IMG/VR virus record: IMGVR_UViG_3300044984_001537
Span: 1-55,334 of that record
DNA length: 55,334 bases
Source: a virus
Reading direction: 5' to 3' (one strand)
Below, piece after piece: positions 7,034 to 39,147 of the stretch. A program made the position numbers and the translations under genes. The notes below the pieces were generated by a model that saw only the letters and a list, made by a program, of their open reading frames with translations, was not told where the DNA came from and searched no databases. The first letter of the stretch is position 1. The number at the start of each line of letters is the position of its first letter.

Positions 7034-8018
7034 TCTGGTATCTGCTTTGTCAACTAGTTCATCAAACAGACCTGAATGGCCTTTAGTACAACCTGGTCCT
7101 TCAGTAAAAATGCCAACAATTAAAGTTAAGCCTTCATCAAACGCCTCAGGTTACCAAACTTGCGTAGTCCTTCCGGATATGCAGATTGGTTATTTCCGTG
7201 CCCGTAACGGTGAATTAGAGGCCACTCATGACGAACACGCCATTGAGATGGCTTTAGCTATCACAAAATCACTTAATCCAGACATGATTGTTCTAGTTGG
7301 AGACAACCTGGACTTCCCTGAATTTGGTAAATACCGCCTTAGTAGTGCTTATGCACTAACTACACAAGCGTCTATTGACCGTGCTACAACCCTTGGAGCA
7401 CAGCTGCGGACGTATGCTCCTAACGCTAAGATTGTATGGCTAGCTGGAAACCATGAAGAAAGATTGGTGAACTTTGTACTCGATAACGCGAAAGCTGCTT
7501 TTGGGATTCGTAAAGGTAATACGCCAGAGTCCTGGCCTGTGCTTAGCATTCCTTATCTCTGTCGTTTCGACGATTACGGGATACATTATGTACCGGGCTA
7601 TCCAGCTGGACAATTTTGGATCAATGAAAAACTCCGCGTCATCCACGGCACAAAAGTACGCAGTAACGGGTCGACAGCGCATGCCTACCTCAACACAGAA
7701 AAAACATCAGTCCTATATGGTCACATCCACCGGCGTGAATGGGCTGAACGGTCCCGTGACGATTGGGATGGTGCAAAGACCATCATGGCCGCATCCCCTG
7801 GTACGTTGGCAAGATGCGACGGCACCGTCCCATCTACCAAAGGATCAATCGACCTGGACGGTAGACCTATGACCATTGTAGAAGACTGGCAGCAAGGTAT
7901 TGGAATAGTCACCTTTGAACCAGGCGATGGTGCGTTTTGGTATGAACAAGTGCCGTTTCATAACGGGTCGGCCTTTTTTAGAGGGAAGTTTTATAATGCA
8001 GAGAAAAAAGAAAGTTGA
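7020..8018 (+). CDS. Calcineurin-like metallophosphoesterase
   Basis: 332 residues, probable two-metal phosphoesterase acting on nucleotides, DNA or phosphoproteins in the infected cell. Motifs in order: LPDMQ (D53, Q55), VGDNLD (94-98), AGNHE (142-146), VIHG (H209) and YGHIHR (H235, H237). The first motif has Gln where classical enzymes have His (DxH). The GTG at 7020 is the first possible start and overlaps the HTH gene; a second GTG lies at 7026. Known phage relatives exist between terminase and capsid genes, with unclear role. Substrate cannot be read from sequence. Confidence 0.85.
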   Translation: MAVSNLVSALSTSSSNRPEWPLVQPGPSVKMPTIKVKPSSNASGYQTCVVLPDMQIGYFRARNGELEATHDEHAIEMALAITKSLNPDMIVLVGDNLDFPEFGKYRLSSAYALTTQASIDRATTLGAQLRTYAPNAKIVWLAGNHEERLVNFVLDNAKAAFGIRKGNTPESWPVLSIPYLCRFDDYGIHYVPGYPAGQFWINEKLRVIHGTKVRSNGSTAHAYLNTEKTSVLYGHIHRREWAERSRDDWDGAKTIMAASPGTLARCDGTVPSTKGSIDLDGRPMTIVEDWQQGIGIVTFEPGDGAFWYEQVPFHNGSAFFRGKFYNAEKKES

Positions 8019-31670: not shown

Positions 31671-31712
31671 TTATTTACCTCCCTTCCTATACTTGCTTGT
31701 CTTCTTAGACAT
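31671..31712 (-). CDS. Possible 13-residue basic peptide
   Basis: Tiny frame MSKKTSKYRKGGK. Its ATG overlaps the stop of the upstream gene (TGATG), and its TAA is directly followed by the next ATG. Such tight joints favour translation by coupling. It could also simply be a leader carrying the ribosome-binding site of the next gene. Very basic; function unknown. Confidence 0.3.
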   Translation of the reverse strand: MSKKTSKYRKGGK

Positions 31713-32011
31713 CAGCAGTCCCAAGCACGAAGAGATTTGTTAATACGGGAATCCGGATCGTTAGCAGTTTTAGATGAAGTGTTCTTCTTCTTCATGCCTT
31801 CCATACGAGCACAAAAAGAATCACGACGCGCTGCTGACTTCTCAGACTTAGCGGCCTGTTCTTTCTTTACCGGTGGCTTAAGGTCGCTGCCAGGATTTGC
31901 GCGCTCGTAAGACTTACGTCCTTTTTCGTTAAGACCACCCTTGGGGTCCTTGCCCTCGGCACGAGACCAAGCGGCTGTCTTTTTAGCTGGGGCTTTCTTT
32001 TTTTCTGCCAT
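31712..32011 (-). CDS. DUF6321-like small basic protein
   Basis: 99 residues. N-terminal Lys/Ala tail (MAEKKKAPAKKTAAWSRAEG) followed by KGGLNEKGRKSYERANPGSD, LKPPV and RRDSFCARMEGMKKKN, ending SLRAWDC. This set of phrases is characteristic of small proteins of phages and bacteria annotated as DUF6321. Their role is unknown. Ribosome-binding site AAGGAG; nine bases after the Dps gene stop, so in one transcript with Dps. High Lys/Arg suggests nucleic-acid contact. Confidence 0.65.
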   Translation of the reverse strand: MAEKKKAPAKKTAAWSRAEGKDPKGGLNEKGRKSYERANPGSDLKPPVKKEQAAKSEKSAARRDSFCARMEGMKKKNTSSKTANDPDSRINKSLRAWDC

Positions 32012-32506: not shown

Positions 32507-32535
32507 TTGTGGGGGTGACTGGAGTGGGCTATGAT
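32507..32535 (+). promoter_or_regulatory. Possible promoter of the replication operon
   Basis: TTGTGG (32507-32512), 17-base spacer, TATGAT (32530-32535). The -10 is 5/6 to consensus but overlaps the ATG at 32531. Transcription would then begin near 32542, giving a leaderless start at the in-frame ATG 32546. Since GGAG lies before 32531, this site is only tentative. The 75-base divergent gap must hold promoters for both sides. Confidence 0.3.
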
Positions 32536-33796
32536 CACTAGTCCAATGGGAACCAGTAACGTTTTTGGTGGACGCTTTTTAGCAGTCCCTGAGTGGGCAG
32601 TGCCCCTCATTTTTAAGCATGGTCAACCACGCGATCTGCAGGTTTTAACATGCCTTGTTTCAATGATGCACATCCATAACAAATCTGTTTCGGCGTCTAT
32701 TCAAGAGATTGCTGATGCATCATACACTTCAAAAGAAACTGTAAAACGATCACTCAAATGGCTCTCAGAGCAACAAATAATCACAACAAAATTACGACAA
32801 AAACCAAAACCAAACACTTACATTATTAACTACACACAACCAGCAATAGGGTCACCCATGACCCTATCAACCACCAACAAAACACCCTTAATAGGGTCAC
32901 CCATGACCCTACCCACTATCCCCAATGGGGTCACCCATGACCCTATCAAAATGAACATAACACCAGCACAAGTAACAAAAGCGCTGATCTCTAGAGAAAT
33001 AGTAATAATAGAGAGTAATAGTAATAAAACCCTAAAGAAGGCCGATGGCCCTCGTGATAAGGTAGAGGATATGATTCTTGGCGCAGACGTAAACGAAAAA
33101 GCAAAGGTTGAAGAACCAGTAAAACGTAAACCTCGACCAGAGGTAAACGACTTGGCTAGTTACTTTGTGTACCATCCACGATCAGTAATGGTTTGTTCAT
33201 ACTCCTTTCAGGACATGAACATTCTTCGCAGAACAATCAAGCTTCTACTAGACGCTGGTGTTTCACGAACAACAGTTCGTCAAATGATTGACAAGTTCTT
33301 TAGCACCGACCGTATGCGTGGAGCAGAATCCCCAGTTCTTATGTTTTCTAGCAAAGGTGTTCAAGCATCCCTAATGGAAACACTTGACACAGTGTTAGAT
33401 AACACCAGTCCAATTCTGAGTTTGATGCTCAATGACTTTAATCGTGAGGGGCTGGATTTACCTTGGGATAAATCTTCTGATGAAGCCTTACGTAAGGTTA
33501 TTATTATCTCAGGAATGGACGTGTGCTATAGGTACCCAGAGCTAGTAGCACAAGTTATCGAGCTAGCTGATGATTTCTCATCATCATTGTTTAGAAACCA
33601 AATTAGTTCTTTAAACTCCCTGGTCAAGTGGCATATTGGAGAAGAAGAAGTAGACCTTAAAGAACTACAGGAAGATCTTGTGGGTATCACACTTCCAAAA
33701 GAACTGCTTGCAAAAACTCGTACTGCCCTCCGACCTGCTGCTGATACGATTGTCTCAGCGATTTACAACTATCGGAGAGTGACCCATGGAAATTGA
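32531..33796 (+). CDS. Replication initiator-like protein (lambda O-like)
   Basis: 421 residues. N-terminal winged helix (~15-95): VPLIFKHGQPRDLQVLTCLV, SVSASIQEIADASYTSKETV, KRSLKWLSEQQIITT. This is a HTH_36/Rep-type DNA-binding domain. A Pro/Thr-rich linker (~100-170) is encoded by three 18-bp inverted repeats and an AT-rich stretch. The C-terminal helical domain (~200-420) could contact the helicase or loader encoded next. Start at 32531 chosen from GGAG; 32546 also possible. First gene of an operon of helicase loader, DnaB and primase, the arrangement of lambda O-P. Function is inferred from domain and order. Confidence 0.7.
   Translation: MITSPMGTSNVFGGRFLAVPEWAVPLIFKHGQPRDLQVLTCLVSMMHIHNKSVSASIQEIADASYTSKETVKRSLKWLSEQQIITTKLRQKPKPNTYIINYTQPAIGSPMTLSTTNKTPLIGSPMTLPTIPNGVTHDPIKMNITPAQVTKALISREIVIIESNSNKTLKKADGPRDKVEDMILGADVNEKAKVEEPVKRKPRPEVNDLASYFVYHPRSVMVCSYSFQDMNILRRTIKLLLDAGVSRTTVRQMIDKFFSTDRMRGAESPVLMFSSKGVQASLMETLDTVLDNTSPILSLMLNDFNREGLDLPWDKSSDEALRKVIIISGMDVCYRYPELVAQVIELADDFSSSLFRNQISSLNSLVKWHIGEEEVDLKELQEDLVGITLPKELLAKTRTALRPAADTIVSAIYNYRRVTHGN
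32846..32946. repeat. Three iteron-like inverted repeats
   Basis: Three copies of AGGGTCACCCATGACCCT or GGGGTCACCCATGACCCT (arms AGGGTCA/TGACCCT, 4-base centre). The cores start at 32848, 32893 and 32927. In copies 1 and 2 the frame reads IGSPMTL; in copy 3 it is GVTHDPI, so the DNA, not the peptide, is conserved. Likely binding sites of the initiator in which they lie. Confidence 0.8.
32996..33035. other. AT-rich stretch, possible duplex-unwinding element
   Basis: About 40 bases dominated by A/T with repeated AGTAATA/AGTAATAG units, 50 bases after the third inverted repeat. This is the order iterons then AT-rich DNA seen in lambda-type origins. Coding continues through it. Role inferred. 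Confidence 0.45.
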
Positions 33797-34001
33797 TGGA
33801 GTGTTTGCATTTACGAATTTTGAAGAACTAATACGTTTTGTGAATTGGGTCACAACATCGTTTGAAACACACGAAGAGTTTGAAGAGTGGCTAGAGTTGC
33901 GCACCTCAGAAGCTTCAACTATTGACTCAGACTTTTGGAGCATAATTGAAAATGGCTACTACACGGAGAATCATGACACAGACATTCCAGGTTCCGACTG
34001 A
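33786..34001 (+). CDS. Small acidic hypothetical protein
   Basis: 71 residues, strongly acidic (TTSFETHEEFEEWLELRTSE; DSDFWSIIENG). Overlaps the initiator gene end and the start of the helicase-loader gene on both sides, so it belongs to the operon. Acidic small proteins here may mimic DNA or regulate the initiator, but no family is recognised. Confidence 0.5.
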   Translation: MEIDGVFAFTNFEELIRFVNWVTTSFETHEEFEEWLELRTSEASTIDSDFWSIIENGYYTENHDTDIPGSD

Positions 34002-34581
34002 TTGGAAATCAGAGAAGTGGTGGAGAAACCGCTCTGTTGAAGAGCGCTTATTTCATACACGAATTCCCACACGCTGGGCAGAATGGTCTTTAGAGTCACT
34101 TACGGTAAGTGATCGCTGTATTGAAGAAGTTACCAACTGGGTTAACAACTACCAGCAAGGTGACAGTTTGTTTTTGTACGGCAAGACTGGATCAGGAAAG
34201 AGTATTGTTGGTCAAGCAGTTCTTCAAGAACTTGTTTTGCGCAACGGTGCATCTGGCCGTTTTGTAAGCAGTGATCGCTACATAGATATGCACAAAGATA
34301 CATTTGAACAAGACGGTGGACTTCTTCCAGAGATGTACTCAATGCCCTACCTCCTTAAATACATTCAAGGAGTTTTTGATGTTGTGCTACTTGATGGAGT
34401 GGGACAAGAGCGTGAAACAGAATTCTCAACTCATGAAGTAGGTAGTCTTATACGCAGACGCTACGAAGACACCCGCTCAATGATCATCACTACAACCCTA
34501 GGAACCATGGACTTTAATCGTCGGTATGGTGATCGGGTAAAGGTATCCACAACAGAGATGACTGAAATAAGGGTTTCCTAA
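33952..34581 (+). CDS. DnaC-like AAA+ helicase loader
   Basis: 209 residues from the ATG at 33952 (MATTRRIMTQTFQV); a TTG six bases upstream is less likely. IstB/DnaC-like ATPase: Walker A GKTGSGKS (77-84), Walker B VVLLDGVG (D148), sensor-like stretch MIITTTLG, and RRRYEDTRS as possible Arg-finger region. Placed between the initiator and the DnaB-like helicase, the expected role is loading that helicase at the phage origin. No Zn domain is seen at the N-terminus. Confidence 0.85.
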   Translation: MATTRRIMTQTFQVPTDWKSEKWWRNRSVEERLFHTRIPTRWAEWSLESLTVSDRCIEEVTNWVNNYQQGDSLFLYGKTGSGKSIVGQAVLQELVLRNGASGRFVSSDRYIDMHKDTFEQDGGLLPEMYSMPYLLKYIQGVFDVVLLDGVGQERETEFSTHEVGSLIRRRYEDTRSMIITTTLGTMDFNRRYGDRVKVSTTEMTEIRVS

Positions 34582-35024
34582 TGGAACGTGGTGACATAGC
34601 AGAGTATTCCATCTTGGGGCAGTCCTGCATATGGGAGGGTGTCCTATCTGCACCCCCTGAAGGTGTTACAGCCAAGGCCAAGTACAAGTTTTATGAACGA
34701 GCAAATAATTGGGAAACTGCAATTCCAATGTGGAAACCAAATGATCTTGCTGTACGCTCCCTAGCTGACTGCGTTAATCGTTTGGGAATTGGTACTGATG
34801 TAATCACCTTCCTGCACCCTGAAGCAGTAGATCCAATTTACGAATGGTTACTACGTAAAGGAGTCCGCACTACAGTATTGTGGTACGACTCACCCAAAGA
34901 TTACGAAATAGATTTGCGATACAACAGAGGCATACGAACAGTGTATGTATCAACTGACGAAGAAGCGTTTACGATAGGGTTTAGAGCCCACGTTGTTAAA
35001 CCAAACACTGCATGGAGAATATGA
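34581..35024 (+). CDS. Hypothetical protein in the replication operon
   Basis: 147 residues. A polar N-terminus (IAEYSILGQSCIWEGVL) and a C-terminal half with alternating beta/alpha units (TDVITFLHPEAVDPIYEWLL, then VRTTVLWYDSPKD, RTVYVSTDEEAF) that suggest a Rossmann-like fold without nucleotide motifs. One-base overlap with the loader (TAATG) and overlap with helicase point to co-expression. Could be a helicase-associated factor; unproven. Confidence 0.5.
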   Translation: MERGDIAEYSILGQSCIWEGVLSAPPEGVTAKAKYKFYERANNWETAIPMWKPNDLAVRSLADCVNRLGIGTDVITFLHPEAVDPIYEWLLRKGVRTTVLWYDSPKDYEIDLRYNRGIRTVYVSTDEEAFTIGFRAHVVKPNTAWRI

Positions 35025-36277
35025 TGGCTTCCAGCGAGCTATACCTAGTTTCAAAAATCATTCAAGAAAAAGACCTGAATACCCCAATCAAAGCCGGTTT
35101 GAAAGTTGAGCACTTCACTGGTTCATGGCCCGAGATATGGTCATGGTTATTGGAGTTCAACCGTGTCCATGGTGCAGTTCCTACCGAACGTGTGTTCAAC
35201 CAAGAATTTGGAGATGTCACATTAGAGGATGCATCTGGAGAAACTTTCTCTAGGTTGATTGAAGAAGTGGTAGCAGGGTTTAGAAGAAGAACCATCATGG
35301 ATTCTTTGTCTCATGCAATTCCTGCGATTGACGCAAACAACCTTGAAGAGGCAATGGCCGCTCTATCGGTAGGTTTACAAAAAGCATCTGTTGATGCTGC
35401 CCGCCTTAGAGACATTGACATTATTCAAAACTGGGAAAACAGAATGGCCCGCTATGAGGTAATGCGGAATACCCCAAACGCTCTTCGTGGTATTCCAACT
35501 GGCTTTCATGGTCTTGACAAGATTACACATGGTTTACGTCCACAGCAATTTATTGTGTTTGCTGGCGAACCAAAGCGTGGAAAGTCTTTGTTTGCTTTGA
35601 TCCTTGCCAACTCTGCACACATCCACGGAAAGCGCCCACTCTTTGTTTCTTTTGAAATGAGCATTGAAGAACAAGAAGCACGGTATGACTCATTGATTTC
35701 CAAAGTACCGTATACCCGCATCTTGTCAGGTGACTTAAACAACGATGACATGATAAAGATCCGCAAAGCCTTGAGCATTCGTAAGAACATGCATCCATTT
35801 GTTTTTAGTGAAGACACTTCCTCACTTACAACAGTTACAGCTCTTGCTGGGAAAGTTCAGGAATACCAACCTGACGTATTGTTTGTTGATGGTGTGTACT
35901 TGATGGATGACGAGGAGGGTGAAGCAAAAGGAAGTCCACAAGCCTTGACGAACATAACAAGATCTTTAAAAAGACTTGCACAGCGTTTTGACATTCCTGT
36001 AGTCGCAACTACTCAGGTTCTTTCTTGGAAGCTAGGCAACAAAAAGACTCGTGCGGTTACGGCAGATGCAATTGGTTACACCTCATCTTTTGCACAAGAC
36101 GCCGACTTGATTCTTGGTGTTGAGCGAAACCCAGATATGGAAGACCAAGCAATCATCAGAGTTGTATTAGCCCGTACAGCCCCTACTGGAGAAGTGCACG
36201 TTAAATGGGACTGGACTACTATGGAATTTGAGGAGGTATCAGATTATGACGACCACATCAACCCCTCATTCGACTAA
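35024..36277 (+). CDS. DnaB-like replicative helicase
   Basis: 417 residues from ATG 35024, six bases after GGAG; two other in-frame ATGs lie at 35012 and 35021. Hexameric 5'-3' helicase. N-terminal helical domain (1-130) is shorter than in E. coli DnaB. The RecA-like C-domain has GIPTGFHGLDKITHGL, Walker A GEPKRGKS (181-188), SFEMS with catalytic-type E211, and Walker B DVLFVDG (D289). Works with the loader (33952), primase (36246) and polymerase. Confidence 0.9.
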   Translation: MASSELYLVSKIIQEKDLNTPIKAGLKVEHFTGSWPEIWSWLLEFNRVHGAVPTERVFNQEFGDVTLEDASGETFSRLIEEVVAGFRRRTIMDSLSHAIPAIDANNLEEAMAALSVGLQKASVDAARLRDIDIIQNWENRMARYEVMRNTPNALRGIPTGFHGLDKITHGLRPQQFIVFAGEPKRGKSLFALILANSAHIHGKRPLFVSFEMSIEEQEARYDSLISKVPYTRILSGDLNNDDMIKIRKALSIRKNMHPFVFSEDTSSLTTVTALAGKVQEYQPDVLFVDGVYLMDDEEGEAKGSPQALTNITRSLKRLAQRFDIPVVATTQVLSWKLGNKKTRAVTADAIGYTSSFAQDADLILGVERNPDMEDQAIIRVVLARTAPTGEVHVKWDWTTMEFEEVSDYDDHINPSFD

Positions 36278-38718: not shown

Positions 38719-39147
38719 ATGAGTACTAATCCAAAGATCCATGAAGTTGACCTGGGACGAATAGTTACTGAATACGTAAACTTAAAGAGCCTTATTGACA
38801 AGTACCAAGAGCGCCTAGATCAGATTAAAAAAGAACTAAGCAGCCAAGTAGACTTCTATGGAGATGTTGATGATAAAGGACATAAGTGGCTTCCTGCAGG
38901 AGAGCATCAACTAAAAAGAGAACGTCGCGTCTCTATTAATTTGGATAACCGAACTGCAGAACAGTGGGCCAGAGCTAATAACATGTGGGAAGATGTCTCT
39001 GAAGAAGTAAGAGTGCTTAGCGAAGATAAGCTTTTAGGTAAAGTATGGGATAACCCAGAACTAAAACTTGAGCTTGATGAGCTTTATGTCAAAAAGGAAT
39101 CATGGGCATTTAAAGTCGTAGAAGGAAAGAGCTACGGAGACGAATGA
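38719..39147 (+). CDS. Coiled-coil hypothetical protein
   Basis: 142 residues from ATG 38719, with GGAG just before. Central heptad-like stretch (EYVNLKSLIDKYQERLDQIK, KELSSQ) followed by a conserved-looking GDVDDKGHKWLPAGEHQLKR. Similar unassigned proteins occur in actinophage replication regions by general memory. No enzymatic motif. A small perfect hairpin (38680-38698) lies in the preceding gene end. Likely accessory to DNA metabolism. Confidence 0.55.
   Translation: MSTNPKIHEVDLGRIVTEYVNLKSLIDKYQERLDQIKKELSSQVDFYGDVDDKGHKWLPAGEHQLKRERRVSINLDNRTAEQWARANNMWEDVSEEVRVLSEDKLLGKVWDNPELKLELDELYVKKESWAFKVVEGKSYGDE

What the first reader, a model, noticed from the sequence alone, without database searches (positions are those of the whole stretch)
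32846..33035. Iteron-like inverted repeats and AT-rich element inside the initiator gene (lambda O-like origin)
Three copies of AGGGTCA-CCCA-TGACCCT (third with a G at the first base) sit in the linker region of a winged-helix protein gene, starting at 32848, 32893 and 32927 (spacings 45 and 34 bp). Copies 1 and 2 are read in one frame (IGSPMTL) and copy 3 in another (GVTHDPI), so selection acts on DNA. An AT-rich stretch follows ~50 bp later, and helicase-loader, DnaB-like helicase and primase genes come next. Lambda O has the same plan: initiator with its own iterons in the linker, followed by AT-rich DNA. The repeat sequence itself does not match any iteron I know.
Basis: partly seen in the sequence, partly recalled or inferred. 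Interest (0 to 1): 0.85.

Follow-up and report, generated by a model that had tools for sequence, protein, structure and literature searches.

The report
Phage replication origin inside initiator gene
A phage appears to carry its replication start site inside the gene for the protein that recognises it, and comparison with many other phages suggests that one amino acid of that protein largely goes with one letter of the DNA repeat it reads.

Summary
Observation confirmed: three 18-bp inverted repeats AGGGTCA-CCCA-TGACCCT (32848, 32893, 32927) lie in the probably disordered linker of a winged-helix (wHTH) initiator gene, followed by AT-rich DNA and DnaC-like loader, DnaB and primase genes. Relatives that reach the linker all carry an array (52 of 52 loci, many near-identical), in either orientation and two frames, so selection acts on DNA. 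A short hairpin about 95 bp past the last repeat is also conserved. Best reading: a lambda-O-like origin bound by its own wHTH (by architecture, not Pfam membership).

Beyond the finding: arrays of GTCA-N4-TGAC lie inside wHTH genes in 105 of 186 cases (control placements 2 of 347). The base 5' of GTCA tracks recognition-helix residue 72 (equivalent to FNR Ser212): Lys-G, Asp/Glu-C, Ile/Met/Val-T; 45 of 51 clustered entries obey (permuted mean 18.3, maximum 34), and residue 72 ranks first of 76 columns. Against: Lys-T and mixed Gln cases, one named phage with Asp-Arg but other repeats, and a tree-based test too weak for significance. Binding and origin activity are inferred, not shown.

The parts
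32531..33796 (+). initiator gene, 421 aa: wHTH, low-confidence linker, all-helical C-terminal domain
   Evidence: weak PHROG replication-initiation / O-like hits
32579..32839 (+). codes the wHTH DNA-binding domain (residues 17-103), CRP-like fold
   Evidence: AF2 model; VIA-align Z about 9 to CRP chains, rmsd 1.6-3.0, 62-66 aligned, other wHTH families score alike; sequence alignment to CRP
32732..32770 (+). recognition helix (residues 68-80); K72 codon 32744-32746, R73 codon 32747-32749
   Evidence: residue 72 is the column most informative about the repeat's outer base
32848..32865 (.). iteron 1, AGGGTCACCCATGACCCT
32893..32910 (.). iteron 2 (third place of the common four-site register 0/+22/+45/+79; the +22 place is empty here)
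32927..32944 (.). iteron 3, GGGGTCACCCATGACCCT
32840..33130 (+). codes the low-confidence (probably disordered) linker that carries the origin DNA
   Evidence: pLDDT under 50 for residues 104-200
32970..33029 (.). AT-rich element (73% AT), probable unwinding element
   Evidence: the equivalent place (+26 to +36 after the last iteron) is the AT maximum of the gene in 19 of 20 homologous genes, the window's own gene being the exception
32993..33027 (.). two 16-nt direct repeats AGAG(A/T)AATAGTAATAA inside the AT-rich element
33040..33050 (.). hairpin GGCC-GAT-GGCC (only 4 bp here; 5-6 bp in 11 of 15 genes compared)
33140..33793 (+). codes the C-terminal helical domain, no Pfam match at E<=0.01 and no PDB Foldseek match with E<=0.001
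33946..34581 (+). DnaC-like helicase loader (listed ORF start; true start not determined)
   Evidence: PHROG 50, E 1.9e-17; found in 23 of 23 loci examined
35012..36277 (+). DnaB-like replicative helicase
   Evidence: PF03796 E 4e-36; found in 22 of 23 loci, the missing one being the 4,085-base L162
36228..37163 (+). DnaG-type primase

Best explanation
The region is the phage's replication origin, embedded in its initiator gene. Dimers of the encoded wHTH protein bind the inverted repeats: in each half-site GGGTCA the near-invariant Arg73 (with residue 69) reads the G of GTCA and Lys72 reads the base 5' of it. Several dimers on sites set in steps of about 11 bp (22-23, 33-34, 45 bp) form a nucleoprotein complex, strain melts the AT-rich DNA about 30 bp beyond, and the DnaC-like loader places DnaB there; the hairpin after the AT-rich DNA may bound the bubble or mark the entry or priming site. 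Shown here: the sequence features, their conservation, and the residue-72/base association. Inferred: binding, dimers, melting, loading, the direct contact, and the hairpin's role.
For: Cluster only in this gene of the record. All 52 loci that reach the linker carry an array. The same protein family carries the array in either orientation and in alternating frames. Window and seven close relatives: 5 of 54 iteron columns vary vs 39 of 116 other linker columns, no synonymous difference in iterons. AT maximum at +26..+36 in 19 of 20 genes and hairpin of 5 bp or more in one 12-bp window at +96 in 11 of 15 genes vs mean 1.3 (sd 1.5) over windows. Loader and helicase in the same loci. Wider set: arrays inside wHTH genes 105 of 186, control placements 2 of 347. 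Residue 72 vs base: 45 of 51, permutation maximum 34 in 20,000; subset from the scan that did not choose the base: 19 of 22; residue 72 first of 76 columns; pairs under 20% identical share the base in 187 of 266 cases when the residue class is the same and 193 of 951 when different. Within the window's own family Lys->Ile goes with GGGTCA->GTGTCA (L091) and Lys->Gln with AGGTCA (L085/L087). FNR's Glu209, Ser212, Arg213, equivalent by alignment, make the major contacts with its site (passage of PMC4505428).
Against: No binding or replication data. No GC-skew switch near 33 kb. Four Lys clusters go with T (all their rows have R or A, not E, at residue 69: post hoc); Gln goes with C, G or T; L038 (Asp) goes with G, though its array is outside the gene. 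In L085 the Gln change alters the next base out, not the base 5' of GTCA, so that among pairs 40-85% identical with different residue class the base is the same in 20 of 32. Arthrobacter phage Altadena has Asp-Arg in the helix but linker repeats without GTCA. The tree-based independent-pairs test gave only 2-3 pairs on supported branches: no significance. 67 of 186 arrays have no wHTH nearby by this profile, including all 29 distinct arrays first fetched by the AGTCA scan. The rule was formed on part of the data; Glu, Val and Leu were added after seeing the table, and the prospective scans were mixed (see full report).
Confidence: 0.8

Rival explanations
1. The sites are autoregulatory operators: the wHTH protein binds inside its own gene to repress early transcription, and the true origin is elsewhere.
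For: Profile matches to solved structures are mostly CRP, a transcription factor; sites in a gene can block transcription (general knowledge).
Against: Sites are 317 bp inside the coding region with a conserved AT-rich stretch and hairpin behind them and helicase-loading genes next. The two roles are not exclusive.
Confidence: 0.1
2. The repeats are selected as protein: a repetitive linker peptide (GSPMT/GVTHDP), not as DNA.
For: The repeats are in an open gene; spacings that are multiples of 3 are over-represented (64 of 124).
Against: Copies are read in two frames and, in relatives, from the opposite strand, giving unlike peptides (GSPMT, GVTHDP, GSRVT, GVMGDP); no synonymous difference in iterons; in L041, L038 and L046 the repeats are at or beyond the end of a short wHTH gene.
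Confidence: 0.02
3. A host factor or another phage protein, not the encoded wHTH, binds the repeats.
For: Not excluded by position alone.
Against: Repeat sequence tracks residue 72 of the gene that contains it across very different proteins, which a host factor would not explain (inference).
Confidence: 0.04
4. A plasmid-type partition or copy-control site rather than the start site.
For: Iterons also serve copy control in plasmids (general knowledge); a wHTH centromere-binding protein, AspA, is among the weak fold matches.
Against: AT-rich element, hairpin and loader/helicase neighbours; no ParA among the ten window proteins scanned by Pfam (the other genes were not scanned).
Confidence: 0.04

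Closest known systems
Phage lambda ori inside gene O
   Same: Initiator with its own inverted-repeat iterons in mid-gene and AT-rich DNA next; lambda iterons are 18 bp at 39034, 39054, 39078, 39101, spacing 20-24 bp; each lambdoid iteron is an inverted repeat (passages of PMC7466680); a helicase-loading gene follows (P; role recalled). From recall only: lambda ori also has an inverted repeat beyond the AT-rich part.
   Different: Iteron sequence, number and spacing differ; the protein does not match Pfam PF04492, which lambda O does; a DnaC-like loader and its own DnaB follow, whereas lambda uses P and host DnaB (recalled); lambda O matches my wHTH profile only weakly (E 8e-4 in a 22-sequence set).
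CRP/FNR recognition helices
   Same: Aligned SkETvKRsLkWL over SRETVGRILKML of CRP, fold Z about 9; FNR Glu209, Ser212, Arg213 make the major contacts with TTGAT-N4-ATCAA (PMC4505428 passages), the equivalents of residues 69, 72, 73 here.
   Different: No CRP-type effector domain seen in the model; a probable replication initiator, not a transcription factor; in GTCA-N4-TGAC the key G is one base further from the dyad (by inspection).
HTH_36-type O-like initiators of lambdoid and Vibrio phages (e.g. Escherichia phages mEp554 and mEp013)
   Same: wHTH gene with repeats in the linker; mEp554 helix SKSTAMRAV (Met at the equivalent of residue 72) with GTGTC half-sites fits the rule.
   Different: Half-site spacing differs (GTGTC-N5-GACAC), and four Vibrio relatives have the half-sites turned outward (GTGACA-N3-TGTCAC).

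Membership tests
Lambda-type origin (by architecture) | clustered iterons inside the initiator gene | tested here: met
Lambda-type origin (by architecture) | AT-rich element on one side of the iterons | tested here: met
Lambda-type origin (by architecture) | helicase-loading genes directly downstream | tested here: met
Lambda-type origin (by architecture) | initiator binds the iterons and the DNA melts (O-some) | not testable with these tools
   needs bench work
Pfam PF04492 Phage_rep_O | match to the family profile | tested here: not met
   no PF04492 among matches up to E 0.1; lambda O scores 123.4 bits
PHROG replication initiation / O-like families (270, 678, 391) | match to the profiles | tested here: inconclusive
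   window E 7.5e-5 to 2.5e-3; 8 of 11 family members match PHROG 270 at E<=0.001, best 7.8e-12
CRP-like wHTH (PF13545 HTH_Crp_2) | match above the curated cut-off | tested here: inconclusive
   20.4 bits vs cut-off 27; fold and sequence alignment to CRP
HTH_36 (PF13730) | match to the profile | tested here: not met
   window protein has no match up to E 0.1; of ten proteins, five more distant ones (L299, L161, L147, L127, L112) score above its cut-off, while the closer L085 and L091 do not match at E<=0.01

The most novel reading that the evidence does not exclude
CRP-type wHTH phage initiators follow a simple readable code: the residue before the near-invariant Arg of the recognition helix sets the base 5' of the GTCA half-site (Lys with Glu69: G; Asp/Glu: C; Ile/Met/Val/Phe: T), so the origin sequence of an unknown phage can be predicted from its initiator, and new origin specificities arise by paired changes of one codon and of the repeats that lie in the same gene some 100 bases away.
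Probability: 0.55. Interest if true: 0.78.

Novelty: new variant of a known kind. Interest (0 to 1): 0.62.

Why it matters
An initiator and its binding sites in one gene are a self-contained system in which protein and DNA must change together. Many natural examples of such pairs, with one helix position dominating, give a ready-made test of how replication specificity evolves, a way to find origins in unannotated phage contigs, and a replication counterpart of the CRP/FNR specificity positions.

Tried and rejected
Rejected: peptide-level selection (frames, strands); origin read from GC skew. tblastn with the window's protein found no match in the phage collection at E<=0.01, its wHTH part alone only weak Mu-type hits (best E 0.8). 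BLASTN with the iteron cluster found nothing in phages and two plasmid hits at E 3. Exact iteron text in papers: 0 (open PMC library only). Genome collection, two-copy pattern: 2 stretches, Streptomyces toxytricini (L055, no wHTH recognised by eye among the ORFs printed) and Evansella vedderi (L056). Prospective C-scan was weak: 7 stretches, 2 already known; of 5 new, 2 had a wHTH hit (one Asp, one Gln), 3 none. A-scan (33 stretches): none of its 29 new distinct arrays has such a wHTH, so no residue for A emerged. Tree-based pair test underpowered. C-terminal domain: no Pfam match in 16 members, no PDB match with E<=0.001, one viral match with E<=0.001, a helix-turn-helix protein of an uncultured phage. 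Alignment to CRP rests on a profile match with E about 0.005. Literature: listings of searches and passages of PMC4505428, PMC7466680 and PMC2908626 (the last held nothing on recognition-helix residues) showed no report of this iteron or of a residue-base code for phage initiators; subscription journals are mostly not held.

Rows dropped: 8 of 119 wHTH rows before the clustered count (gapped helix or array 300 bp or more away); rows with no majority base were kept as 'n' in the counts and left out of the pair and tree tests (104 of 111 kept; then 77 and 91 after removing near-duplicates).

Full report
What is there. The gene at 32531-33796 codes a 421-residue protein. The model has a fairly confident wHTH (about 17-103), a low-confidence stretch 104-200 and a helical C-terminal part (mean pLDDT 68.7, pTM 0.36). 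The C-terminal part folded alone is more confident (85.9) but has no Pfam match at E<=0.01 and no PDB match with E<=0.001. A DnaC-like loader, DnaB and a DnaG-type primase follow.

Relatives. An alignment of 11 homologues found 55 loci in IMG/VR, many near-identical. Three are fragments that miss the linker (L088, L090, L110); the other 52 carry an array (49 by the script, which allowed up to 4 mismatches in 16; L085, L087 and L091 by inspection and repeat search). In L045, L047, L053 and others the same family carries the repeat in the opposite orientation, so that the peptide differs. In eight same-length genes (window and seven relatives) 5 of 54 iteron columns vary against 39 of 116 other linker columns (Fisher one-sided 4e-4) and 186 of 1,093 elsewhere; against all other columns together the difference is weaker (p 0.05); no iteron difference is synonymous. 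L008 and L009 give the same counts, so the sequences are not independent.

Origin anatomy. In 20 homologous genes the richest 60-mer in A+T begins 26-36 bp after the last iteron in 19; in the window that stretch is 73% AT but a 75% one lies upstream. In 15 genes a hairpin with a stem of 5 bp or more falls in one 12-bp window starting at +96 in 11, against a mean of 1.3 (sd 1.5) over windows; with 4 bp, 13 of 15 against 3.8. The stem sequences differ (GCCGC/GCGGC, GTCCCC/GGGGAC, GCTCCC/GGGAGC, GACCGC/GCGGTC, GGCTG/CAGCC, GTCGC/GCGAC), so pairing rather than sequence is kept. The window's own stem is 4 bp. L015, L019, L027 (same hairpin) and L092 instead have a 15-16 bp perfect stem at +60. The loader is found in 23 of 23 loci examined and DnaB in 22 of 23 (the exception, L162, is only 4,085 bases long); several of these loci are near-duplicates.

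A wider class. The exact 16-bp core occurs in 40 IMG/VR stretches, many of them in unlike wHTH genes, some of them single copies with no sign of an array. With the other scans this made 186 distinct arrays of two or more sites. A wHTH profile, first built from 12 sequences (alignment A2) and then iterated, finds a wHTH within 1.5 kb of 119; the array is inside the gene in 105; shifted control placements are inside in 2 of 347. The un-iterated profile gives 97 of 186 and 0 of 347. Some of these loci trained the profiles.

The residue-base association. Counting one entry per 70% cluster, residue and base (111 of 119 rows used): Asp C4 G1; Glu C5; Ile T11; Met T4; Val T1; Lys G20 T4; Leu undecided 1; Gln C3 G2 T7 and 2 undecided; others few. 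The rule acid-C, Lys-G, Ile/Met/Val/Leu-T holds in 45 of 51 (permuted mean 18.3, maximum 34, none of 20,000 reaching 45), and in 28 of 34 at 40% clustering (mean 11.1, maximum 24). Because chose the base, the subset matters: Asp C3, Glu C5, Ile T4, Met T1, Val T1, Leu undecided 1, Lys G5 T2, that is 19 of 22. A scan of 76 columns without any rule puts residue 72 first for this base (z 12.0, next residue 69 at 6.9), and first of 77 for the base beyond (6.7, next 3.8). Pairs under 20% identical share the base in 187 of 266 cases with the same residue class and 193 of 951 with another; at 20-30%, 163 of 232 and 262 of 1,116; at 30-40%, 56 of 66 and 28 of 127.

Results against. Among pairs 40-85% identical with different classes the base is the same in 20 of 32, largely because L085's Gln keeps G and changes the next base. 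The prospective part is mixed: I had noted beforehand that C arrays should have Asp and T arrays Ile or Met. In loci not printed when the rule was noted (L176-L296), T entries had Ile or Met in 10 of 20 (Lys in 3, Gln in 3), and C entries Asp in 2 of 7 (Glu 3, Gln 2); rule classes there obey in 17 of 20, but the T-scan chose its base, so this is not a clean test. The tree test had too few supported pairs to reach significance, though trait and base went the opposite way on average in 0.0 pairs. All ten Lys-T rows have Arg or Ala at residue 69, while 29 of 39 Lys-G rows have Glu there: a two-residue rule is possible but was seen after the fact.

Named phages. Of 21 phage records besides lambda, fetched by protein similarity and not by repeat, eight keep the Arg: mEp554 and mEp013 (Met; GTGTC), MW202738 (Phe; GTGTCA twice), Vibrio phages 431E46.1, D67 and 1.216.O (Met), 1.036.O (Ile), and Arthrobacter phage Altadena (Asp). 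The first three have T before GTC(A) as the rule says. In the four Vibrio phages the half-sites face outward, GTGACA-N3-TGTCAC or decayed forms, with T before GTCA in most half-sites; 431E46.1 has A on one side of most copies. Altadena does not fit: its repeats hold no GTCA. I read these by eye, so they are weaker evidence. The other 13 lack the Arg and do not test the rule.

Fold and mechanism. The profile aligns to E. coli CRP as SkETvKRsLkWL over SRETVGRILKML (E about 0.005), and the model's wHTH overlays CRP with Z near 9, as it does several other wHTH families. Residues 69, 72 and 73 thus correspond to CRP 181, 184, 185 and FNR 209, 212, 213 (numbering by alignment and recall); [quoted passage not shown] Lys-guanine, acid-cytosine and aliphatic-thymine contacts are chemically usual (general knowledge). 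Neighbouring sites in 65 cluster representatives are 21-25 bp apart in 75 of 124 cases up to 50 bp, 26-31 in 5, 32-37 in 15, 38-43 in 9, 44-49 in 20, which suggests steps of about 11 bp and a defined stacking of dimers (inference).

Judgement. The architecture is known from lambda; this lineage's iteron, the conserved hairpin and above all the residue-72 association are the new parts. I found no report of them in the searches listed, which cover open PMC text only.

Noticed in passing
window 33786-34001 (+): A 71-codon ORF lies between the initiator and the loader, its ATG inside the initiator's last codons (read); the overlap TGACCCAT (33780-33787) looks like one iteron half-site.
   Followed up: no
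window about 31711-31975: This stretch matches hypothetical-protein genes of Synechococcus phages such as S-RIM2 at 67-70% identity; the 20 rows shown of 222 all hit here.
   Followed up: no
L041 and L056 (same Evansella vedderi element): Short wHTH gene followed by two different repeat types, one of them GGGTCACCCATGACCCC-like three times, outside the gene.
   Followed up: partly
L015, L019, L027 and L092, about 60 bp after the last iteron: 15-16 bp perfect hairpin inside coding sequence, differing between L015-type and L092 with pairing kept.
   Followed up: partly
L114, L266-L295: Arrays of AGTCA-N4-TGACT are not near a wHTH of this kind; another initiator class may use them.
   Followed up: no
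L118, L126, L144, L166: The same unusual array (spacings 36 and 40 bp, half-site GCACCGTCA) recurs in four contigs without a detected wHTH.
   Followed up: no
L306, L311, L315, L316: Vibrio phage O-like genes with half-sites facing outward, GTGACA-N3-TGTCAC, unlike the inward GTCA-N4-TGAC.
   Followed up: partly
L055 about 7443-7483: Streptomyces toxytricini has two GGGTCACGGGTCACCC repeats 24 bp apart, with no wHTH recognised by eye beside them.
   Followed up: no
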